Positions 834-57,158 of a DNA stretch of 64,000 nucleotides are shown in pieces; the stretch's first letter is position 1, and each line of letters opens with the position of its first letter. The notes under the pieces were generated by a model that made no database searches, had not been told where the DNA came from, and worked only from the letters and a program-made list of their open reading frames with translations. The DNA comes from Rhodococcus pseudokoreensis. Its GTDB lineage: Bacteria > Actinomycetota > Actinomycetes > Mycobacteriales > Mycobacteriaceae. The position numbers and the translations under genes were made by a program. The stretch is taken from the NCBI RefSeq assembly GCF_017068395.1, contig NZ_CP070619.1:124001-188000 (forward strand), in the 5' to 3' direction.

Positions 834-2138
834 GTGTCATCCAGGATTCTCACCCTCAACAAGGCAATGCGGGTCGGTGCCGTGTTCGCCGTGGCCGGCG
901 TGGCCAGCGTGGCACTCACAGCGTGCGGCGGCAGCAGCAACGACACATCCACGTCAGGCCTCAGCAGCGGCGGCAGCTCGTCGAGCTTGACCGGAACGCC
1001 GATCAAGATCGGTTATGTCGCTTCCAAGTCCGGCGCCCAGGCCACGAACGGCCTCGCGGCCGAGGCCGTCGCACACGCCTGGCAGGAGTCCACCAACGCA
1101 AGCGGCGGCATCCTCGGTCACCCGGTCGAGATCGACATGGTCGACTCCAAGAACACCGTTCCGGGCGCCACCTCGGCGGCCAAGGCATTCCTCGCCGACG
1201 ACAGCGTCGACGCCATCTTCATGACCGATCTGGTCGCCGAGGGGGCGATGGCTGATCTGTTCAAGGACACTCCTGTCCCGGTGATCAGTGGCGGCGGCTC
1301 CAGCGACCTGCTCTGGTCGAAGGTCCCCGGCGTCTTCCAGAACGTCTCCGGTTCGGACTACACCATCAAGTCCTACATCGACCAGTCCAAGGCGGCAGGT
1401 GCGAAGAGTTTCGGCTGGGCCGCCTGCGCCGAGGTCGCCGTCTGCGCGACCAACGGTGAAAAGGCCGAGGACTACGTCAAGTCCATCGGCATGACCGCGA
1501 CCGGCGTGCAGCAGTTCTCGGCGTCGGCCACCGACTACACCGCCCAGTGCCTGGCCTTCACCGGCAAGGACACCGATGCGATCGCGTTCAACATCGGCTA
1601 TGCCGTCGGCGCCCGTGTCGCGACCGACTGCCTGCAACAGGGCTACGACGGCATCTTCTCGGTCATCAACTCAGGTTTCGACCAGGAGGCGTTCAGCAAG
1701 GTCTCCGGCTTCAAGTCGGCCGGTGGCACTCAGGGCTTCCCGTGGTGGTCCGACGACGCGAAGGTCGTGGCCTACCGCGACGCCATGAACAAGTACTCGC
1801 CCGACGGCGTCTACACCTCGGGTAATTCCACCGCCATCTGGTCCAGCTTCGAACTGCTCCAGAAGGCACTGGAGAACGCCAAGCCGGCCGAGATCAACCG
1901 GTCGACGGTGATGGACGCGATGTACACCATCAAGGACGAGACCCTCGACGGCCTGCTCCCGGAGCCGATCACCTACACCAAGGGCCAGCCCTCCAAGCCG
2001 GTCGGCTGCAACTGGCTGTTCACCTTCAACGCCGGCGACGACAACCCCGAGGGCATCGCGCCGGCAACGTCCGGCAACAGTGCGACGGGCGACCTCGCCA
2101 GCACCTGCGGCGGCTACCTGCCCGGCCTGGGCATCTGA
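834..2138 (+). CDS. branched-chain-type ABC transporter substrate-binding lipoprotein (434 aa)
   Basis: Extracytoplasmic solute receptor of the Peripla_BP_6 (LivJ-like) family. The N-terminus has basic residues, a hydrophobic stretch and the lipobox LTAC with the lipidated Cys at about residue 31, followed by a Ser/Gly-rich linker. The body starts with IKIGYVASKSGAQA, the usual first strand of this fold. The GTG start is chosen for its GAGGAG site seven bases upstream and because it gives a complete signal peptide. The transporter membrane and ATPase parts lie downstream on the opposite strand (2467-5933). In catabolic clusters such receptors bind aromatic, alicyclic or acid substrates as often as amino acids, so the ligand is unknown. 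A strong hairpin ends the transcript. Confidence 0.88.
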   Translation: MSSRILTLNKAMRVGAVFAVAGVASVALTACGGSSNDTSTSGLSSGGSSSSLTGTPIKIGYVASKSGAQATNGLAAEAVAHAWQESTNASGGILGHPVEIDMVDSKNTVPGATSAAKAFLADDSVDAIFMTDLVAEGAMADLFKDTPVPVISGGGSSDLLWSKVPGVFQNVSGSDYTIKSYIDQSKAAGAKSFGWAACAEVAVCATNGEKAEDYVKSIGMTATGVQQFSASATDYTAQCLAFTGKDTDAIAFNIGYAVGARVATDCLQQGYDGIFSVINSGFDQEAFSKVSGFKSAGGTQGFPWWSDDAKVVAYRDAMNKYSPDGVYTSGNSTAIWSSFELLQKALENAKPAEINRSTVMDAMYTIKDETLDGLLPEPITYTKGQPSKPVGCNWLFTFNAGDDNPEGIAPATSGNSATGDLASTCGGYLPGLGI

Positions 2139-2161
2139 TCCACCGCACACACATCACCGAA

Positions 2162-2193
2162 GGCCCGCGTCCTCCGTCCGGAGGGCGCGGGCC
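2162..2193 (+). terminator. hairpin terminator after the ABC lipoprotein gene
   Basis: A 14-base inverted repeat (GGCCCGCGTCCTCC, one mismatch in the second arm) with a four-base loop is followed by TTT. It begins 23 bases after the stop codon. The 328-base stretch 2139-2466 holds no gene, only this hairpin and the one at 2414. Confidence 0.7.
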
Positions 2194-2413
2194 TTTGCCT
2201 ATCTCCTCCGTTGGGCCGCGGGCCTTCGGCCATTTCCTACGTACGGCTCAGGGTGGGTGCCGGTGCATACCCGCGCTCAACTCCCTACCCCGGCAACCGG
2301 ATCACTTTGCGCCACAACACTGCCCGCGACTCGACCGAGCCGACCCGCTGGAACGCCGCGGCCCCGTGCCCGGGGCGTAGTTCGAACGACCTGGACCGCG
2401 ATGAGGCTCGACG

Positions 2414-2452
2414 CAACTGAGTCCGCCCCCGATCGGGGGGCGGACTCGGTTG
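2414..2452. terminator. hairpin at the convergent end of the liv genes
   Basis: An inverted repeat with arms GAGTCCGCCCCC / GGGGGGCGGACTC, extended by CAAC / GTTG, loops on gatc. It sits 15 bases beyond the stop of the minus-strand livF gene and probably stops transcription from both directions. Confidence 0.65.
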
Positions 2453-2466
2453 CGTTTGCGGGGGAC

Positions 2467-3225
2467 TCAGGCGGCGCCGTCGCCGATGTACTGATCGAGG
2501 ACGTTGCCCTGAAGCAGGGTCTCAGCGCTGCCGTCGTAGGCGATCTCGCCGCGGCGCAGTACGTAGGCGTGGTCGGCGATCGACAGGGTGCGCAGCGCGT
2601 ACTGGTCGACGAGGAGTAGCGCGACGCCCTTCTCGCGCAGGGTGCGGAGGAAGTCGAAGACCAGGTCCACGATGATCGGCGCCAGTCCGAGCGAGGGCTC
2701 GTCGACGAGAACCAGACGCGGGTTGGCGACGTAGGCGGCTGACAGCGCGAGCATCTGCTGCTCACCGCCCGACATGGTGCCGGCCTTCTGGTTCAGCCGC
2801 TCGCCCAGACGCGGGAAGACGCCGGTCGCGATCTCGATGCTCTCCTGGGCGTTGAATGCGTTGGACTGCATCAGCAAGTTCTCCCGCACGGTGAGGTTGC
2901 GGTAGACGCCCCGGCCTTCGGGTACGTGGCACAGTCCCGCGCGCGAGCGCCGCGCCGCCGAGGTCCGCGTGACCTCGTCACCGTCGATCAGCACCTCGCC
3001 CGACGAGGGTCGAATCAGCCCCGAGGCGACGCGCAGCGACGTGGTCTTGCCGGCACCGTTCGGGCCGATCAGGGCCGTCACCGAACCCGGCTCCACCCGC
3101 AGGGACACATCCCGCAGCACCGAGGTGGTCCCGTAGCTGGCGTTGACATTGCGCAGTTCGAGGGCCGGAGTCCCGGTGAGGGCGACTCCCCCTGCGGCCT
3201 CGGTCGTCGTCTGTCGTTCGGTCAT
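2467..3225 (-). CDS. livF: ABC transporter ATP-binding protein, LivF type (252 aa)
   Basis: Second ATPase of a branched-chain-type importer. Visible motifs are the Walker A GPNGAGKTT, the signature MSGGEQQMLALS, Walker B LVLVDEPSLGLAP and a switch-region DQ in place of the usual EH (LLLVDQYA), typical of LivF. The ATG overlaps the stop of the fused upstream gene in an ATGA, so the two are translationally coupled. Together with the fused LivHMG protein and the lipoprotein at 834-2138 it makes a complete importer. Last gene of a minus-strand operon that may begin with the esterase gene at 9349. Confidence 0.9.
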   Translation of the reverse strand: MTERQTTTEAAGGVALTGTPALELRNVNASYGTTSVLRDVSLRVEPGSVTALIGPNGAGKTTSLRVASGLIRPSSGEVLIDGDEVTRTSAARRSRAGLCHVPEGRGVYRNLTVRENLLMQSNAFNAQESIEIATGVFPRLGERLNQKAGTMSGGEQQMLALSAAYVANPRLVLVDEPSLGLAPIIVDLVFDFLRTLREKGVALLLVDQYALRTLSIADHAYVLRRGEIAYDGSAETLLQGNVLDQYIGDGAA

Positions 3226-5933
3226 CGGACCATCTCCTCGATGAGGTCGTCGGCGATCTCGATCTCGGCGTCGGTCTCGGAGCCGAGATACGCCGCCTGG
3301 ACGACGGGGCTGTTGCGGACCTCGCTCGGCGTGCCGTGGAAGAGCATCTTGCCGAAGTCGAGGACGTGGATCTGGGCGCAGATCCTGAGCACGAGAGCCA
3401 TGTCGTGCTCGACCAGCAGGATCCCGCAACCGCGGGTCTCGACGATCTGGGTCAGGGTCTCGCCGAACTTCTCCGTCTCCACCGGATCCAGGCCGGAGGA
3501 CGGCTCGTCCAGCAGCAGGACGTCGAAGGGGCCGCTGAGGCAGCGGGCCAGCTCGACGAGGCGCCGCTGTCCGGTGGAGAGCTCGCCCGCGTTCACGTCA
3601 CGCAGATCTGCGATCCCGCACAGCTCCATCGCGTACTCGGCCGCCTCCCGGGTCGCCCTGCGTTCCTTCCGGGTCGCGATCAGTTGACCGCGCAGGCTGG
3701 AGCCGGCCATGCCGGACTCGACGCCGAGCGCGACGTTCTGCGCCACCGTGAGCGAATCCGCCAACTGCATGAGCTGGAAGGTCCGGCCGAGACCGCGGCG
3801 GCCGCGGGCGGCGGCACCGAGGCCGGTGACGTCCTGGCCGTGCAGCATGACCTGGCCGGTTGTCGGGGTGAGCAGGCCGCTCGCCGCGTTGAACAGCGTG
3901 GTCTTGCCCGCACCGTTGGGGCCGATCAGACCGGTGATCTGGCCGACCGGAGCCGTCAGCACCGCCTTGTCGAGCGCGGTCCGACCGCCGTACTTGATCG
4001 TCAGGTCGCGGATCTCCAGGCCGGTCGCCGCCGACGGGATCTGCCACGGATCGTCGGCGACGGCGACGTTCGGTGCCTCCTTACGACGCCGGAAGTGGGT
4101 CTCGATGAAGTCGCGGGCACGCTGCGGGAGGGTGTCCGCGCCGCCGCGGGTGGCGATCATGATGGCGCCGACGCCGAAGAGCACGCTGAGCCACGGCGTA
4201 GCGGTCTCGCTGTGCCAGTACGCCGGGATCATCGCCGAGACGACGCCCACGACCGCGTACCACGGCTCGCGGAACGGCATCAGTGCCAGCGTGGCGACCA
4301 GGACCAGCGAGTAGTAGGCGGCGTAGTTGCTGTCGCCGAGCACCGCGTAGTGGATGGTGCTTCCGTAGAGCGTGCCGCCGATACCGGCGATGTAGCCGGC
4401 GATGCAGAAGACGATGAGGCGCAACAGGTTGGTGTTGAGTCCGAGGGTGCGCACCGCGAGCGTCGCCTCCGACAGTCCGCGCAGCACCCGGCCCAGCCGG
4501 CTCTGGTGGATGAGCACCATCACGAGTGCGGTGACGACGAAGAAGGCGAGCACGATGTAGTACCACGCCTCGTCGCCGGCGTCGCCCGGTCGCGGCATCG
4601 GCAGGCCGGTGCCCGTCGTACCGAAGAACCAGCTCTTCTGGTAGAGCCAGGCCTCCGCGGACAGGCCGAAACCGAGTGTGGCCAGGGCGAGGAAGAGTCC
4701 CTGCAGGCGGATGGCCGGCAGTGCGAGCAGCGCCGCCACCGGGACGACGACCAGGGCGGAGAGCAGAACGCCGACCAGCCACGGCAGACCCCAGTGAGCA
4801 CTGATCTGGGCGAAGGTGACGGCACCGATCGCGGCGAAAACGGCCTGGCACAGCGAGACCATGCCACCGGTGCGTACGACCAGACCGAGCGAGAGCAGCA
4901 CGATCGCCTGCGTGAGGCCGACGGTCAGGAAGGTCAGGTTGGAGGAGAAGATCTGCGGACCGAGGAGCAGGAAGATCAGCACGACGGCACCGCCGATGAG
5001 ACGAGTGCTGGGCGGGCCGTGGTACGGGATCTTGGGCGCCTGCTCGGCTCGCGCCGGCGTGTCGAGGTGCCGCTTGGGCGTCACCATGAGAGCGACGATC
5101 AGGACGATGAAGGGCAGCGCCGTCGACATGCCCTGCAGGGACGGGATGTCGATCGCGAACTTGGTGAAGAGGCTCGAGGCGACGCCGATCACCAGCGCGC
5201 CGACGTAGGTCAACGGGATGTTCGAGAACCCGCCCAGGGCGGCGGCGCCGAAGGCCTGTACGAACAGGAAGGTCATCGCGACCGCCTCGATGCCGGCGGT
5301 CGGAGCGATCAGCACGCCCGACAGTGCCGCGAGCGAGGCGCCGATGCCCCAGGACAGCCGCTGGACGGCCTGCGGGCTGGTGCCGTGCAGGGCGACGAGG
5401 TCGGGATCGTTGACCACCGCGCGCATGGCCAGGCCGACCCGGCTGAAGCGGAAGAAATAGAACAGCGCGGCGACGATCACCAACGAGATCACGATGATCG
5501 TCAGCTGGGCATAGGTCACGTTGACGCCGGCGATCCGCGTGATCGTGGTGGCGCCGGGCAGGAACGGCTCGGGCCGCAGCGGGTTGAATCCGAACTTGAC
5601 CGTGGACAGGCCCTGGACGAGCAGGACGATGCCCACCGTGGCCACCACCTTGAAGGCGGGCCTCTGGTTGCTCAGTTTGAGACTCACCGCAGAGAGGACC
5701 AGGCCGCTCAGCGGGCCGAACACCAGGACCGACAGCAGCATCGCGAGCCACCAGTTCATGGCGAGCTCGACATGGAGCCAGTAGAAGATGTAGGCGGCCG
5801 CGGCGGCGATCGCGCCATGGCCGATGTTGAACAGGCCGGACGTCTTGTACGTCAGAACCAGCCCGGTCCCGGCGAGGCCGAGCACAGATCCGGTCACCAG
5901 TCCGGCGACGATGAAGGGCAGGAGAGTGTCCAC
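3222..5933 (-). CDS. fused LivH-LivM-LivG importer subunit (903 aa)
   Basis: One polypeptide carries three subunits of a branched-chain-type ABC importer. Residues about 1-285 are a LivH-like permease (GTGLVLTYKTSGLFNIGHGA at the first membrane segments), about 310-600 a LivM-like permease, and about 640-895 a LivG-like ATPase with Walker A GPNGAGKTT, signature LSTGQRRLVELARC, Walker B LLLDEPSSGLD and a final EH switch (LLVEHDMAL). The GTG at 5933 is preferred over one 33 bases upstream because CGAGGT lies six bases before it and the protein then starts directly at the first membrane helix. MG fusions are known in actinobacteria; the triple fusion fixes subunit ratio. The stop overlaps the livF start. 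Confidence 0.88.
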   Translation of the reverse strand: MDTLLPFIVAGLVTGSVLGLAGTGLVLTYKTSGLFNIGHGAIAAAAAYIFYWLHVELAMNWWLAMLLSVLVFGPLSGLVLSAVSLKLSNQRPAFKVVATVGIVLLVQGLSTVKFGFNPLRPEPFLPGATTITRIAGVNVTYAQLTIIVISLVIVAALFYFFRFSRVGLAMRAVVNDPDLVALHGTSPQAVQRLSWGIGASLAALSGVLIAPTAGIEAVAMTFLFVQAFGAAALGGFSNIPLTYVGALVIGVASSLFTKFAIDIPSLQGMSTALPFIVLIVALMVTPKRHLDTPARAEQAPKIPYHGPPSTRLIGGAVVLIFLLLGPQIFSSNLTFLTVGLTQAIVLLSLGLVVRTGGMVSLCQAVFAAIGAVTFAQISAHWGLPWLVGVLLSALVVVPVAALLALPAIRLQGLFLALATLGFGLSAEAWLYQKSWFFGTTGTGLPMPRPGDAGDEAWYYIVLAFFVVTALVMVLIHQSRLGRVLRGLSEATLAVRTLGLNTNLLRLIVFCIAGYIAGIGGTLYGSTIHYAVLGDSNYAAYYSLVLVATLALMPFREPWYAVVGVVSAMIPAYWHSETATPWLSVLFGVGAIMIATRGGADTLPQRARDFIETHFRRRKEAPNVAVADDPWQIPSAATGLEIRDLTIKYGGRTALDKAVLTAPVGQITGLIGPNGAGKTTLFNAASGLLTPTTGQVMLHGQDVTGLGAAARGRRGLGRTFQLMQLADSLTVAQNVALGVESGMAGSSLRGQLIATRKERRATREAAEYAMELCGIADLRDVNAGELSTGQRRLVELARCLSGPFDVLLLDEPSSGLDPVETEKFGETLTQIVETRGCGILLVEHDMALVLRICAQIHVLDFGKMLFHGTPSEVRNSPVVQAAYLGSETDAEIEIADDLIEEMVR

Positions 5934-6110
5934 GTAATACCTCGAGGTTGCTGGGAACGATGGCACGCGCCCCGGGACCGGGCGTCAGGGTCTATTGATG
6001 TTCTATGAATCCCACAATGATTCGTAATGGTCCTCTAATAATGCTTAGAGATCTGGGTCACGTCAATCGTCAGAGCGGACGAATACGACAGAAAGGTTGT
6101 CGCTCTCGCG

Positions 6111-51743: not shown

Positions 51744-52060
51744 ACGGTGTCCGGCAGCAAGGCCGCCGAGATCGTCCTGCCGACGCTCGCCGACTCCCTG
51801 AAAGAAGTCTTTCAGCAACGGAATACGATCGGCAGCACGGATCCTGCTCGAGATCGGCGACGGTTCCGCATTCAAGTCCGCCGGGCACCTCGCCGCCTAT
51901 GCCGGCTTTGCCCCGGTCACCCACCGATCCGGCTCCTCCATTCGCGGTGAACACCCTGCCCGGTCAGCCAACCGCAAGCTCAAACGTGCCCTGTTTCTGT
52001 CCCCGTTCTCAGCTCTCGGCGATCGGACCAGCCGCGACTGTGGCCACCGTCGCCGAATGC
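51744..52060 (+). mobile_element. decayed IS110-family transposase fragment
   Basis: Two pieces in different frames. The first (51744-51835) reads GSKAAEIVLPTLADSLKEVF. The second (from about 51835) reads ARILLEIGDGSAFKSAGHLA, AYAGFAPVTHRSGSSIRGEH and RSANRKLKRALFLSPFSALG, the C-terminal IS116/IS110/IS902 domain. A deletion and frameshift separate them; the N-terminal DEDD catalytic half is missing, so it is inactive. No ends were identified. Confidence 0.8.
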
Positions 52061-52133
52061 GTCGAGGAACCCTGGGTTGTACTCACGCAGCAGGGCGCGC
52101 AGTTTGTGACAGTCATTCGAGACAGGACCACGC

Positions 52134-52420
52134 GATGACCACTGCCCACGATATCGACCTGCGCGAGGTTCTGACCGACCGGACCTCCCCCTCCAGTCCC
52201 GATCTGCTGCGTCGCCTGCTGTCCACGTTCATCGAATCGAGGTCACCTCCGCCGAGGACGGGGCCGGCTGGCTGGCGTTCTTCCGATCGCTGGTCGCCCA
52301 CCGTGAGCGGGGCCCGGTTGGTGACCTCCGACGCCCACGCCGGCCTCGTCGCGGCAATCGGGGCGTCGCTGCCCGGGGCTGCCCGGCAGAGATGTCGAAC
52401 GCTGCACAGGATCAGGCTCC
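52134..52420 (+). mobile_element. internally deleted IS256-family transposase
   Basis: The start MTTAHDIDLREVLTDRTS with PDLLRRLLSTFIE is a typical IS256-type N-terminus. It is joined directly to a later part of the same protein, SAEDGAGWLAFFRSLVA and RLVTSDAHAGLVAAIGASLP, which holds a catalytic Asp region. Roughly the segment in between is missing and the frame changes. It is not functional and shows insertion followed by deletion next to the IS110 fragment. Confidence 0.78.
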
Positions 52421-52488
52421 GCACCACGTGCGCTTCTGGCAGGCTATTGCCCCACCTGTCCCCTACATGCCGATTACCGTCTGCTGGT

Positions 52489-53430
52489 ATGGGTACCACC
52501 TTCCACGGGCCGAGCCCGTGGCCACACATCACCCGCGCGATCCGCACCCGCGGCACGAGGTACGCGGCGATCGGCTACCTCGGCCAGGACGCACCCGACC
52601 TGCTGCCACTGCGAGCCGGGGACATTCTCGTCGTCAACGCCTCCAAGTCCGCGGTAAAAGCGCACGCCACCTCCCCCGCCGCCCTCGCGCACTACCTGAA
52701 CAAAGGTGTCCGGGTACTTTCCTGCCCCACCCTGCACGCCAAAGTCATCGCCACCACCACGCGGGCGGTGATCGGGTCGGCGAACGCCTCCGAGAACTCG
52801 ACCCTCGCCGACGACGGTGTGGTCATCACCGACGATCCCGAGATCATCGCCTCGGTACGGAAGTTCATCGACGCTCTCACCGAGATCACCGAGGTCGATC
52901 AGGTGTTCCTCGACGGCGCCATCCGGGAGTGGGAGATCGGCCGGGCCGTCCCGCTTCCCGGTGTCACCGGCCGGATCCGCCCCGAAGCGGACTTCCTGCC
53001 CGCACCGGTCACCCGGATGTTCGTCAAACACGCCGTCGACTACGAACCCACCCCTACCGAGAAACTGGTGCTCGACAGGCAACGGGGCGCCCACGCCACC
53101 GGTGGGCCGGCGGTGAAATACCAACTCGACTCCCTCCGCCTCGAGAAACCCGGCACCATCCGGCGGGGCGATGTGATCGTCTTCGTCTCCGCCGACGACC
53201 AGTGGCTCCACCCACCGGCGGTGGTGACCTCCGATGCCATGCGGGTCCCGCGGTCCGGCGGGGCGGTGCTGCATTTCCTGCGCACCCGCACCGACCTACC
53301 GGCCCTGCCCCTCACTGACGCAGCGAAGGCGCTCACCGATCTCGGACATCCGGGCTCCCGGCTACGCACCGATCACTACGTCCGCTCCCCGAGCCTGCGA
53401 GCCGCGTTGCTCGGGCTGTGGGAGCTGTAA
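52489..53430 (+). CDS. PLD-like domain protein (313 aa)
   Basis: Contains one phospholipase-D/nuclease-type segment, TLHAKVIATTTRAVIGSANA, at about 82-101: His and Lys of the HKD motif and the following GSxN are present, but the Asp is replaced by Thr. The N-terminal part (RAIRTRGTRYAAIGYLGQD) fits the first strand of such domains; the C-terminal 150 residues are unassigned. The ATG is used because upstream in-frame sequence is the IS256 remnant. It lies tail-to-tail with tpg. It could be a nuclease or DNA-binding protein of a mobile or defence type. Confidence 0.6.
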   Translation: MGTTFHGPSPWPHITRAIRTRGTRYAAIGYLGQDAPDLLPLRAGDILVVNASKSAVKAHATSPAALAHYLNKGVRVLSCPTLHAKVIATTTRAVIGSANASENSTLADDGVVITDDPEIIASVRKFIDALTEITEVDQVFLDGAIREWEIGRAVPLPGVTGRIRPEADFLPAPVTRMFVKHAVDYEPTPTEKLVLDRQRGAHATGGPAVKYQLDSLRLEKPGTIRRGDVIVFVSADDQWLHPPAVVTSDAMRVPRSGGAVLHFLRTRTDLPALPLTDAAKALTDLGHPGSRLRTDHYVRSPSLRAALLGLWEL

Positions 53431-53530: not shown

Positions 53531-54328
53531 TCAGATCCAGTCGATGTGGACGGAGTCGATGTGGTCGAAATGGAATCCGAACTGGTCGCTGTATTTGTCG
53601 AAGCCCTTGTTCTCGGGGTAGTCGAGGGTGGCATGTCGTTCGAGGAGTGCCACGACGCGAGCGTGGTCGTCGCCTGCCAGTGCGGCGGCGAGTTCACGGG
53701 ATTCGTCGCTGCTGAACGGTGTGTCCGAGTTGGCGAAATCCAGTGTGCGGACACGATAGTCGTATCCCTCGTCGGCGCCGTTGCGGACCATCACCCCGCC
53801 CCTGACGCGAATGACGGCCTTCTTCGGTGTTCCGTCCGGGCGGAGTACGCCGGCGCGTTTCATGATGTCCTGGGCTGTGACGTTCCTGAGTTTCTTGCCG
53901 GCGTCGGCACGCAGTTCATTCGTGTCCCCGGACCGGTATCGGGAAACGGCGGATCGGGACCGTCCGATCTTCGCGGCAACGGCGTCGATGCCGCCGAGGC
54001 GTTCGATCGCTGCGCGGCGTTGCGCACGCTCGAGGACGTCGGCGTGCGGGATGCGGCCAAGTTGGGCCCATCGACGCAGTGTGCGGTCCGACGGCGGTGT
54101 CCGGCCGGCATCGATCGCCGCCTGGCGCAGTCCCTCGTTGCCGAGCTCTTTGCGCAGCTGCGTGACCGAGACCTTGCTGGTCAGCCCGGCCAGTCCACCG
54201 CTCTTGACCTGCTTCGACTTTTCGACGCCGGTCGTTGCGGCGCCCGCGACCGAGACCTTGAGGCCGTCGAGACCGACCGTTTGCTGGGGCGGCTTCGTGG
54301 TCCGCGGCTTCGGAAGATGAAGCGCCAT
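53531..54328 (-). CDS. tpg: telomere terminal protein Tpg homologue (265 aa)
   Basis: Homologue of the protein covalently attached to 5' ends of linear actinobacterial replicons. Two helix-turn-helix-like segments are visible: SDRTLRRWAQLGRIP (about 80-95) and DAVAAKIGRSRSAVSRYRSG (about 112-131). The C-terminal half has AVIRVRGGVMVRNGADEGYD, where Streptomyces Tpg has a similar RVRARFG strand, and the end DQFGFHFDHIDSVHIDWI parallels the VEFTDIDYIELDL ending of Tpg. It is longer than the 185-residue Streptomyces protein through an N-terminal extension. The ATG shares its A with the tap stop (TGATG), so translation is coupled. Confidence 0.75.
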   Translation of the reverse strand: MALHLPKPRTTKPPQQTVGLDGLKVSVAGAATTGVEKSKQVKSGGLAGLTSKVSVTQLRKELGNEGLRQAAIDAGRTPPSDRTLRRWAQLGRIPHADVLERAQRRAAIERLGGIDAVAAKIGRSRSAVSRYRSGDTNELRADAGKKLRNVTAQDIMKRAGVLRPDGTPKKAVIRVRGGVMVRNGADEGYDYRVRTLDFANSDTPFSSDESRELAAALAGDDHARVVALLERHATLDYPENKGFDKYSDQFGFHFDHIDSVHIDWI

Positions 54329-56094
54329 CACTCGTCCTCTTCCTCGGCGAAGGCCGCTTTGATCGCCAGATTCACGTCGTGAACGTCCTCGGCGGAAGCG
54401 AAGGCGGATAGGAGTGTATCCGTGACGATGGTGTCCTTCTCCACCGACATCTTCCCGAGCGCCTCACTCGGGTCGGCGATGTCCTCGCCGCCGGCGAGCA
54501 GATACACCCAGGAGTCGGTGACGGTGCGGATCGGCCAGCGGCCGTGCTCACGGGCAATCCGCATCGCGACGCGGCGGCCGCGCCACCGGCAATGCGCGAT
54601 GATCGCCGCCCGCCACAGCGGCTGGTGATGGTGCTGCATTCGTGTCGCAGTCCACATGTCGGGGTTGACCATCCGCCCGATGTAGCCCTTGTAGCAAGAT
54701 CCGACGAACCGTTTCGTCGGCGCGTCGTCGATGTCCACCGCGGCGCGTCGGGCCTCGCGCAGGATCTTCGCCCACTTGTCCAGCACCCGGCCCTGCTGCG
54801 GATACACCCAGGCCTCGGTGATGTCGAGATCGTCGAGATCGGCGCCGATCCCGCCATCGGCCACCGGCGAGCACAATCCGTCGAGGCTGACCGAGGTGAC
54901 CCAGGTCTGCACGGGCTGGTCGTCGAGCATGTGCGGGTGCGGCAACGGCAGCTTGCCGGGCAGCGACAGCGTCTGCCCGGGCGGCAGGGTCACCCGCCAC
55001 AGCCCGAACGGGGCACCCTTGTCCCCTGCTGCCGCAGCGGCAGCCGCCTCACCGGTCAGATGCTCGGGCTGCCCGTACCCGAATTCGAGCATGCCCGCGG
55101 AGGCGAGGTAGGCGGCGCGTTGGTCGATGGACACCACCCGGCTCGTTCCGTCGAGGTCCTCGGCGTCGGGCACCCTGGTCCAGCCGACTGCGGGTTCGAG
55201 GTCGCCGCGTGGGGCGCCGTCGAGGGGCGGTACCGGGCCCGCGGTCGCCACGACGAGGCCCTTCCCCGAGCGGGTGCGTTCCCGCTTGATCTTGTCGACG
55301 ATCGCGGCGCCGGTGCGTGCGGGTGTCGGCCCGGGGAGCACCCCGAGATTCTTCGCGGACCATGCCAGCCGGCGTCCCAGCTCGCGTGCTGCCGGGAGGT
55401 CGTCGTCCGGGAGATACGTTCCGGCGGTGGGTGAGCCGAGAATGCCCATCTCGCCGACCCGGTTGTTCCAGCCGAAGTCCTTGTTCCAGTACGTCCACAC
55501 GTACGGCTCGATCACCACATCGACCATCGAGGTGAACTTGCCGACGGACCGGGACAGGTGCACCACATGCCCCGGGTCGCCCCGCAACTCCCATCCCGCA
55601 TTCAGCATCGGTGTCAGGGTTGCCTGCAGGACCGCGGTCAGATCGGAAGCGGCACGGGTGCGCAGCGCCTCCATGTCCTCGAAGTCGTCTTCCGAGCCGG
55701 GGTCGATCACCCACCCCAACGCCTCGCACGCACCCTGGCCCACGATCCACACCTGCGGAGGCGCACCCAGCGGGGTCAGGGCGGCCCAACGAATCAGCTT
55801 GTCGAGCTTGTCGACCGAATCCACCGGACCGGTCAGCTCACGGCCGGACGGTGTGTACGTACCCTCGACGGTCACGATCAGGGCGTGGCCATCAGCTTCG
55901 TCTCCCCCCGGGAGCGTCTCCCACGCCGGTGGGGTGGCGGCTGCGGCACTGCCTGTTTCCGGGGGTGGTGGGGTCGAGATAGCTTCGGCAACGTCGGGTT
56001 GTTCGTCCGGTTCGGGTTCGGGGGGAACGTCAGCCGGGTCGACGTGTGTTGTGGTGTCATCGAATTCGAACAGTGCGTATTGGTCGTCTGCCAT
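54328..56094 (-). CDS. tap: telomere-associated protein Tap homologue (588 aa)
   Basis: Homologue of Tap, the partner that brings Tpg to single-stranded telomere ends. The first 60 residues are acidic and proline-rich; the middle holds GGxx-type strands; the second half matches Tap order: VVSIDQRAAYLASAGMLEFG (about 321), WVYPQQGRVLDKWAKILREA, TKRFVGSCYKGYIGRM (about 460) and RAAIIAHCRWRGRRVAMRIA with TVTDSWVYLLAGG (about 524). These resemble polymerase motifs A, B and C. The helix-turn-helix of Streptomyces Tap was not found at the N-terminus. ATG at 56094 has GGGAGG seven bases upstream. Coupled to tpg, as in Streptomyces. Confidence 0.75.
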   Translation of the reverse strand: MADDQYALFEFDDTTTHVDPADVPPEPEPDEQPDVAEAISTPPPPETGSAAAATPPAWETLPGGDEADGHALIVTVEGTYTPSGRELTGPVDSVDKLDKLIRWAALTPLGAPPQVWIVGQGACEALGWVIDPGSEDDFEDMEALRTRAASDLTAVLQATLTPMLNAGWELRGDPGHVVHLSRSVGKFTSMVDVVIEPYVWTYWNKDFGWNNRVGEMGILGSPTAGTYLPDDDLPAARELGRRLAWSAKNLGVLPGPTPARTGAAIVDKIKRERTRSGKGLVVATAGPVPPLDGAPRGDLEPAVGWTRVPDAEDLDGTSRVVSIDQRAAYLASAGMLEFGYGQPEHLTGEAAAAAAAGDKGAPFGLWRVTLPPGQTLSLPGKLPLPHPHMLDDQPVQTWVTSVSLDGLCSPVADGGIGADLDDLDITEAWVYPQQGRVLDKWAKILREARRAAVDIDDAPTKRFVGSCYKGYIGRMVNPDMWTATRMQHHHQPLWRAAIIAHCRWRGRRVAMRIAREHGRWPIRTVTDSWVYLLAGGEDIADPSEALGKMSVEKDTIVTDTLLSAFASAEDVHDVNLAIKAAFAEEEDE

Positions 56095-56115
56095 TGATCG
56101 CCCTCCCCCGTTCAT

Positions 56116-56406
56116 CTATTCAGCGACCTCGCCGTTGGAGTCCACGTCGGGCACGCCGTTGCGTGCGAAGAACTCCTGCAGCGCAACGTCGACGACATTG
56201 GTCACCGAATATCCGTACTCCTGAGTGAACCACCCCAGCCGCCGCGACGTACTCACGAGCACGCGGGTATTGAGGGGCTCCTTGTCCGGTCCCTTTTTCG
56301 GCTCCAGTGCCGAGGTAATTCGTGGCGTCGAGGTGGGTGTTTCGGACCTCTCGGCGCGATGCCGGGATCGGGCATTTCGACTTCCCAGTCCGCGAGAATC
56401 GGGCAT
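56116..56406 (-). CDS. small ribbon-helix-helix-like DNA-binding protein (96 aa)
   Basis: Basic, disordered N-terminus (SRGLGSRNARSRHRAERSE) followed by a C-terminal segment with the pattern of a ribbon-helix-helix fold: LNTRVLVSTSRRLGWFTQ, EYGYSVTNVVDVALQEFFAR. Similar small proteins act as repressors or partition proteins of actinobacterial plasmids. The ATG at 56406 has GAGAGGA nine bases upstream; a longer frame to 56487 lacks a site. It is 21 bases ahead of tap, so it is the first gene of the telomere operon and may bind the palindromes at 56520-56555. Confidence 0.6.
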   Translation of the reverse strand: MPDSRGLGSRNARSRHRAERSETPTSTPRITSALEPKKGPDKEPLNTRVLVSTSRRLGWFTQEYGYSVTNVVDVALQEFFARNGVPDVDSNGEVAE

Positions 56407-57158
56407 CGCACGTTGTCCTCTCCACATCCCGGTCGCCGGCGTTGCGTCACAGCCCGCCGACCTCGAATCGGCTTTGAACGTAGCCAACCGCCCTGGGAGC
56501 GAACTTACGTGCTAGCTTCCTTGCGCGCAAGAATACGTGAATATTTGCGCGCAAGGTGCCTCCGATCTGTCCCACCGGGAGAGCCCTCAGCTAATGCGGC
56601 AAGAGGCGCCTCTGCACGTAAACACCGCGGTGACCAGGTCGTATGCGGCTCCACTGACAAGGTCTTGCCGGCAACTATTCGTCGTAATGGGTCTCGATGC
56701 CCAAGGGGCGTGCACTTGGAATCTCGTTCACCGCGCTGGAATCTCGCGAATGAAACGCTCCCCCGCGGGAAGAAGTGAGTGTCCGCTGCGCGATTCGAAC
56801 GCGCGCAGAGCACGCGCAGAGTCGGTCGATGAGGCCGATCGGCGGGGACCTGACCGTGCGGGTAACTACCAGATCTGAGCACGCACGCTGGCCACGCGCT
56901 GACTAAATTCAAGATAGGGCGCTTCCGAATTCAATCGCACATAGCGCTATTCCTGCCAACGGAATCGGTTAGGGGAAAGCCGGGACGGATGCCGTTCGAG
57001 GTGTTCAGGCGAACAATGCCGAGTTGAGAAGTGAATCGATGCGGTCTTCTGCCACAACGTTTTTCGCGAGTTTACTCGATTATTCTACTTCCGGTTGCCG
57101 AGTGGTCCAGGAAGCGGATCCAGGCGCAGTCCCCGTGAACCACAGTCAGACACCCGAA
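56407..57158. other. upstream region of the telomere operon and adjoining gene-free stretch
   Basis: No intact gene in about 750 bases. It holds the paired TTGCGCGCAA palindromes (next entry), a T-arm-like GCGCG-TTCGAAT-CGCGC on the minus strand near 56790 without the rest of a tRNA, and at 57005-57079 (minus) a remnant reading SSKLAKNVVAEDRIDSLLNS related to the fragment at 48500-48690. Confidence 0.45.
56520..56555. promoter_or_regulatory. two palindromes TTGCGCGCAA, 24 bp apart
   Basis: CTTGCGCGCAAG at 56520-56531 and TTGCGCGCAAG at 56545-56555 are each self-complementary, with AT-rich sequence between. They are about 115-150 bases upstream of the ribbon-helix-helix-like gene. Spacing slightly over two helix turns suits cooperative binding of a dimeric repressor, or iteron-like replication sites. 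Confidence 0.55.

What the first reader, a model, noticed from the sequence alone, without database searches (positions are those of the whole stretch)
53531..56406. Coupled tap-tpg telomere operon with a ribbon-helix-helix-like first gene
The minus-strand operon RHH-like gene, tap, tpg (21-base gap, then a TGATG overlap) encodes the end-patching module known from linear Streptomyces replicons. The C-terminal motifs of both proteins match in order. This implies the whole window sits on a linear replicon and places a catabolic island next to a telomere module. The 265-aa Tpg has an N-terminal extension absent from Streptomyces Tpg, and the RHH-like gene ahead of tap is not part of the classical operon.
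Basis: partly seen in the sequence, partly recalled or inferred. Interest (0 to 1): 0.72.

Follow-up and report, generated by a model that had tools for sequence, protein, structure and literature searches.

The report
Chromosome-end replication operon in Rhodococcus
These genes most likely make a DNA-copying enzyme and its protein primer, which fill in the ends of this soil bacterium's linear chromosome; the enzyme's predicted shape resembles virus polymerases that also start copying from a protein.

Summary
In detail: an RHH-like gene, tap (588/595 aa) and tpg (265 aa) form a coupled minus-strand operon. The window lies on an 8.73-Mb contig, the chromosome by size, whose two ends carry a 16,025-bp, 99.95% inverted repeat; the operon is 178 kb from one end. 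Both proteins fall far below the curated Streptomyces Tap/Tpg cut-offs but are remote homologues by profile comparison (Tap E 1.2e-8, Tpg E 7.5e-7), and Tap matches the pAL1 telomere-associated protein directly (E 2e-9).

New point: the Tap model (pLDDT 82) has a family-B DNA polymerase fold; the nine best Foldseek PDB rows are phi29 DNA polymerase, the protein-primed type. Asp331 and Asp534, at the motif A and C positions, are invariant in seven aligned lineages including Streptomyces. A 2015 paper says Streptomyces Tap has no polymerase motif. Sequence searches do not detect the relation, so it rests on predicted fold and motifs.

In Rhodococcus two telomere types go with two Tap types (3 of 3 type-2 ends). 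Two plasmid records labelled circular that carry the pair have inverted-repeat ends. The operon is a variant of a known kind.

The parts
53531..54328 (-). tpg: terminal protein, 265 aa (HTH about residues 103-140; candidate priming Tyr189, numbered 190 in the 266-aa form)
54328..56094 (-). tap: telomere-associated protein, 588 aa (595 aa from the ATG at 56115), predicted B-family polymerase fold
55123..55125 (-). codon of Asp331 (motif A position, IDQRAAYL)
   Evidence: invariant in 23 of 23 and in 7 of 7 lineages
54514..54516 (-). codon of Asp534 (motif C position, TVTDS)
   Evidence: invariant in 23 of 23 and in 7 of 7 lineages
56116..56406 (-). RHH-like first gene, 96 aa, probable operon regulator
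   Evidence: no Pfam or NCBIfam match
56520..56555 (.). two copies of the palindrome TTGCGCGCAA upstream of the RHH gene; possible operator, not conserved in relatives

Best explanation
The operon encodes the end-patching machinery of the host's linear chromosome. Tap is a divergent B-family DNA polymerase of the protein-primed (phi29) type whose exonuclease-like domain has probably lost its catalytic acids. Tpg is the terminal protein that supplies the priming hydroxyl. After replication from an internal origin leaves a 3' overhang, the overhang folds into the telomere palindromes; Tap binds there with Tpg, uses the site formed by Asp331 and Asp534 to add the first nucleotide to Tpg and makes a short primer that a host polymerase extends; Tpg stays on the 5' end. 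The RHH-like protein probably controls the operon. Shown here: the genes, their homology to studied Tap/Tpg proteins, the predicted fold, the invariant carboxylates, and inverted-repeat ends on the replicon. Inferred: catalysis by Tap, the priming residue, loss of exonuclease activity, control by the RHH-like protein. The order of events is carried over from Streptomyces work (PMC4513846, PMC3572947).
Against: No sequence method finds a polymerase: PDB sequences, Pfam for 23 Tap members, hhalign with phi29 polymerase at 0.1%, phage records by tblastn. Motif C has one Asp where phi29 has two; motif B is ambiguous. The Streptomyces Tap model is poor (pLDDT 60, pTM 0.43) and its phi29 hits are not significant (E 0.0076 or worse). 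TM-scores for the Rhodococcus model are only about 0.4. The outermost telomere is missing from the assembly. Five of 16 tpg contigs show no such ends, and an RHA1-like chromosome with telomere ends has no tpg. Both proteins are far below curated cut-offs.
Confidence: 0.8

Rival explanations
1. Tap is a telomere-binding recruiter with an inactive polymerase fold; another polymerase does the nucleotide addition, and Tap only places Tpg.
For: Motif C has a single Asp, motif B is ambiguous and sequence similarity to active polymerases is undetectable.
Against: The motif A and C aspartates are among only 18 invariant columns across seven lineages. Streptomyces Tap, a remote homologue, adds nucleotides to Tpg in a purified system (PMC4513846, passages and Discussion).
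Confidence: 0.15
2. The fold match is an artefact of prediction, and Tap is a separate polymerase class, as Yang et al. 2015 proposed.
For: No sequence-level relation; 23-sequence alignment; low TM-scores; poor Streptomyces model.
Confidence: 0.12
3. The operon is a decayed or borrowed plasmid module sitting in a chromosome that does not use it; the C6 inverted repeat is an assembly effect and the chromosome is circular or uses another system.
For: Neither contig end starts with a known Rhodococcus telomere sequence. The genome holds a second Tap/TP pair on C2 and another tpg on C5. An RHA1-like chromosome with telomere ends lacks tpg.
Against: The repeat is 16,025 bp at 99.95% and starts at the first base of both ends. 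Another chromosome-sized contig, G027:C2, shows the same pattern and carries tpg 167 kb from an end, and G009:C5, with telomere ends, carries it 195 kb from an end. Tap and tpg are open and conserved; C5 has only fragments of tap.
Confidence: 0.07

Closest known systems
Streptomyces tap-tpg operon (NCBIfam NF047542, NF047541)
   Same: Gene order, terminal-region location, remote homology of both proteins, invariant motif A and C aspartates.
   Different: Far below curated cut-offs; no N-terminal HTH match in Tap (present in the Streptomyces protein); Tpg 265 aa instead of about 185, with an N-terminal extension; an RHH-like gene in front.
pAL1 (Arthrobacter Rue61a) telomere-associated protein and terminal protein
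   Same: Tap core, E 2e-18 over 254 aa; adjacent downstream HTH terminal protein.
   Different: pAL1 Tap has 1707 aa with primase-like N-terminal matches; Rhodococcus has its own pAL1-type pair on other replicons.
tap/tpg-like genes reported on Rhodococcus linear plasmids (WAY2, DK17, NI86/21)
   Same: The WAY2 plasmids carry this family. The papers speak of distant tap/tpg or of telomere-binding and terminal proteins (PMC7276702, PMC11984191, PMC12915292; passages).
   Different: Here the pair is on the chromosome. The passages read give no polymerase fold and no pairing of telomere type with Tap type.
phi29 DNA polymerase and terminal protein
   Same: Predicted fold of Tap over most of its length; motif A and C spacing; neighbouring polymerase and terminal-protein genes.
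   Different: No detectable sequence similarity; one Asp in motif C; gene order reversed; a patching role is expected, not whole-genome replication.

Membership tests
Streptomyces-type Tap (NF047542 equivalog) | Score above the curated cut-off of 600 bits | tested here: not met
   27.2 bits
Streptomyces-type Tap (NF047542 equivalog) | Homology to Streptomyces Tap | tested here: met
   hhalign 95.6%, E 1.2e-8, 406 columns; control 0.4%
Streptomyces-type Tap (NF047542 equivalog) | N-terminal HTH (HTH_3/HTH_31 in the Streptomyces protein) | tested here: not met
   present in L060, no such match here
Streptomyces-type Tpg (NF047541 equivalog) | Score above the curated cut-off of 90 bits | tested here: not met
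   15.3 bits
Streptomyces-type Tpg (NF047541 equivalog) | Homology to Streptomyces Tpg, gene directly downstream of tap | tested here: met
   hhalign 91.8%, E 7.5e-7, 109 columns; one-base overlap
Streptomyces-type Tpg (NF047541 equivalog) | Thr114 (or Ser) followed by Asp115 as priming site | tested here: inconclusive
   Tyr190-Asp191 invariant in 15 of 15, one residue off in the alignment
Family B DNA polymerases, protein-primed | B-family polymerase fold | tested here: met
   predicted model only
Family B DNA polymerases, protein-primed | Motif A and motif C metal-binding aspartates | tested here: met
   Asp331 and Asp534 invariant; assigned by order, spacing and local sequence, not by a residue-level structural alignment; motif C has one Asp
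Family B DNA polymerases, protein-primed | Motif B (Kx3NSxYG) | tested here: inconclusive
   Gly480 invariant, but the Lys is out of register in the Rhodococcus type
Family B DNA polymerases, protein-primed | Nucleotide addition to a terminal protein | not testable with these tools
   needs purified proteins
Invertron (linear replicon with terminal inverted repeats and 5' protein) | Terminal inverted repeats | tested here: met
   16,025 bp, 99.95%
Invertron (linear replicon with terminal inverted repeats and 5' protein) | Palindromic telomere at the outermost end | tested here: inconclusive
   not in the assembly of C6
Invertron (linear replicon with terminal inverted repeats and 5' protein) | Protein bound to the 5' ends | not testable with these tools
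   needs gels or mass spectrometry

The most novel reading that the evidence does not exclude
Tap proteins of linear actinobacterial replicons, the Streptomyces ones included, are B-family DNA polymerases of the phi29 kind: a virus-like polymerase and its protein primer became the end-replication machine of cellular chromosomes, instead of a new polymerase class that arose independently. In Rhodococcus two such pairs coexist and each serves its own telomere type, so hybrid plasmids need both.
Probability: 0.65. Interest if true: 0.8.

Novelty: new variant of a known kind. Interest (0 to 1): 0.62.

Why it matters
[quoted passage not shown] A predicted phi29-like fold with invariant motif A and C aspartates makes that question testable by two single-residue changes, and suggests where linear bacterial chromosomes got their end-replication enzyme. 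The same family points to a candidate for the terminal protein of the giant M. avium linear plasmids, called 'as-yet-unknown' in 2026 (PMC12803027, passages), and flags linear replicons that databases list as circular.

Tried and rejected
Calling the proteins Tap and Tpg by the curated models: rejected; scores are far below cut-off, and at the loose threshold used both models also ring in 12 of 14 control genomes.

Finding the polymerase by sequence: PDB sequences, Pfam for the 23 members of A1, Pfam for one Streptomyces and one C2-type Tap, hhalign with phi29 polymerase, phage records by tblastn. None showed it.

Streptomyces Tap model: low confidence; its fold hits are told, not relied on.

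The palindrome pair ahead of the RHH gene: in the window only, not repeated in the 15 other loci read (a 17th locus, L173, was dropped because the script did not find its RHH core). Not claimed as an operator.

Motif B through K468 and Y475: I first took this register because the spacing fits phi29, but the seven-lineage alignment puts Gly480 there instead. Left open.

Corrections to my notes: the notebook gives 16 of 29 and 16 of 20 RHH-paired loci; recounting searches gives 17 of 29 and 17 of 20. It also gives 4 of 28 telomeric contigs without tpg (p 5.8e-4); with G027:C5, which joins the telomere cluster, it is 5 of 28 (p 0.0012). Dropped from the contig test: G009:C1 and C2 (small, only their starts were read) and G006:C7-C9 (not read). 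The split tpg on G027:C1 was not counted as full-length. Contigs of one genome are not independent, and relatedness was not controlled.

Full report
What is there. Three coupled minus-strand genes were confirmed at the stated coordinates: an RHH-like gene (56116-56406), tap (54328-56094, or from 56115) and tpg (53531-54328), with a one-base stop/start overlap between tap and tpg. The window is G000:C6:124001-188000; C6 has 8,730,774 of the 9,866,560 bases of a six-contig genome, so by size it is the chromosome.

The replicon is linear. The first bases of both C6 ends begin an inverted repeat of 16,025 bp at 99.95% identity. The operon lies 177.5-180.4 kb from base 1. The outermost telomere is not in the assembly: neither end starts with a known Rhodococcus telomere. 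Two other chromosome-sized contigs carry tpg near an end: G009:C5, with telomere ends, 195 kb away, and G027:C2, with inverted-repeat ends, 167 kb away. A third, G006:C3, has it at 694 and 942 kb and shows no such ends. Streptomyces tap-tpg also lies in the terminal region as a rule (PMC3572947, passages).

Homology. Curated models give 27.2 bits for Tap (cut-off 600) and 15.3 for Tpg (cut-off 90). I took seven Taps and seven Tpgs from loci (Tpgs read). All come from one genus code, which I call Streptomyces because relatives of L060 bear that name. Profile against profile, Tap scores 95.6%, E 1.2e-8, over 406 columns and Tpg 91.8%, E 7.5e-7, over 109; crossed controls give 0.4% and 3.5%. Window Tap also matches the pAL1 telomere-associated protein by tblastn (E 2e-9) and blastp (E 2e-18, 28% over 254 aa). 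The gene pair is not new: the WAY2, DK17 and NI86/21 papers mention tap/tpg-like or telomere-binding and terminal proteins on Rhodococcus linear plasmids (passages), and some database entries for close relatives are already named telomere-binding protein or terminal protein (P0024).

What is in print on Tap as a polymerase. Yang et al. 2015 (PMC4513846; [quoted passage not shown] From recall only, the abstract of the pAL1 enzyme paper (Kolkenbrock 2010; not held) mentions partly conserved family B motifs in its C-terminal segment, so the idea is not without precedent. A 2026 survey of bacterial polymerases (PMC12926913) was searched for six terms: 'terminal protein' and 'protein-primed' do not occur, and no passage shown is about Tap. 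Searches combining Tap or telomere with family B, AlphaFold, phi29 or protein-primed terms listed no paper whose title or abstract start makes this link; apart from the papers named here only those listings were seen, and most subscription papers are not held.

Replicon association. I compared both ends of 44 contigs from the 12 genus genomes (of 28) that have at most nine contigs. Inverted-repeat or telomere-like ends were seen on 11 of 16 contigs with a full-length tpg and 5 of 28 without (p 0.0012). By genome, 7 of 7 with such ends have a full-length tpg, against 2 of 5 without (p 0.045). Exceptions run both ways: the RHA1-like chromosome G005:C1 has telomere ends and no tpg, as do G006:C4, G006:C6, G011:C6 and G027:C5, so the function may act in trans; and five tpg contigs (G000:C5, G006:C3, G010:C2, G010:C3, G015:C2) show no such end, perhaps through incomplete assembly. 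Of 148 plasmid records with a Tap match I opened 11: nine are labelled linear and two circular. Both 'circular' ones have inverted repeats from the first base of each end: about 350 bp at 77% (M. vanbaalenii) and 475 columns at 88% (pMyong2).

Two telomere types, two Tap types. The ends cluster into type 1 (20 ends) and type 2 (3 ends). A pAL1-type Tap occurs in 6 of 28 genus genomes, the six full-length copies lying 1.0-7.4 kb from a contig end. All three type-2 ends (G005:C3 left, G009:C3 left, G011:C6 right) have it 6.0-7.4 kb inward, and the opposite end of each of these contigs is type 1. G006 and G017, with type-1 ends only, lack it. The own genome carries it on C2. The WAY2 paper noted one odd plasmid end; the pairing is my inference, from three cases.

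The RHH-like gene. Its start lies 2-3 kb ahead of the tpg start on the same strand in 17 of 29 full-length loci: 17 of 20 in the group at 91% identity or more, 0 of 9 in the 82-84% group. On two plasmids close to that second group (pBD2, pLP2) a small RHH-type protein and a PemK/MazF toxin stand ahead of tap instead. On four other plasmids a ParA gene lies just upstream. I take the RHH-like protein as an operon regulator; a partition role is possible. RHH is judged by eye from the sequence pattern; no Pfam or NCBIfam match supports it.

Tpg. It has an N-terminal extension of about 75 residues and a weak HTH match. The Streptomyces priming site is T114, with a negative charge required at 115 (PMC3572947, passages). 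The nearest invariant hydroxyl-acid pair here is Y190-D191 (15 of 15), one residue off in the alignment. A tyrosine primer is therefore a guess worth testing.

Verdict. This is an end-patching operon where one would expect it, a divergent variant of a known kind, with good though indirect evidence that its main enzyme is a B-family polymerase.

Noticed in passing
L089 (G000:C2:1-20000), about 1628-4874: A second, pAL1-type Tap (in a 1795-aa open frame) and terminal-protein pair in the same genome, 2.6 kb from the contig end.
   Followed up: partly
L012 (G000:C5), C5:129339-130638: A full-length tpg (91% identical) beside a tap reduced to two short pieces, like the lone tpg genes of Streptomyces plasmids (PMC3572947).
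   Followed up: partly
L209 (M. avium pS2b), 2081-4719: A Tap homologue (hhalign 100%, E 1.6e-43) and, 17 bases on, a 233-aa gene whose HTH part matches Tpg (84.6%, 61 columns): candidate for the terminal protein called as-yet-unknown in PMC12803027.
   Followed up: partly
L198/L199 (NZ_CP126902) and L211/L212 (NC_020276): Plasmid records labelled circular whose two ends are inverted repeats; probably linear.
   Followed up: partly
L059 (pBD2) 5487-6005 and L196 (pLP2) 2130-2648: A small RHH-type protein and a PemK/MazF toxin gene end 28 bases before tap, so that a toxin-antitoxin pair may share its operon.
   Followed up: no
window 52057-53430: A plus-strand ORF beside tpg with a short Mutator/IS256 transposase match at its start and a weak phospholipase-D-like match; pRHL3 also has a phospholipase D family gene near tap.
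   Followed up: no
L207 (G000:C1:266-1438): A partial, 47% identical pAL1-type Tap with one stop at the left end of C1.
   Followed up: no
pRHL2 (NC_008270) 88214-90820: The tap copy is hit in two pieces with an IS5 family transposase annotated under the match.
   Followed up: no
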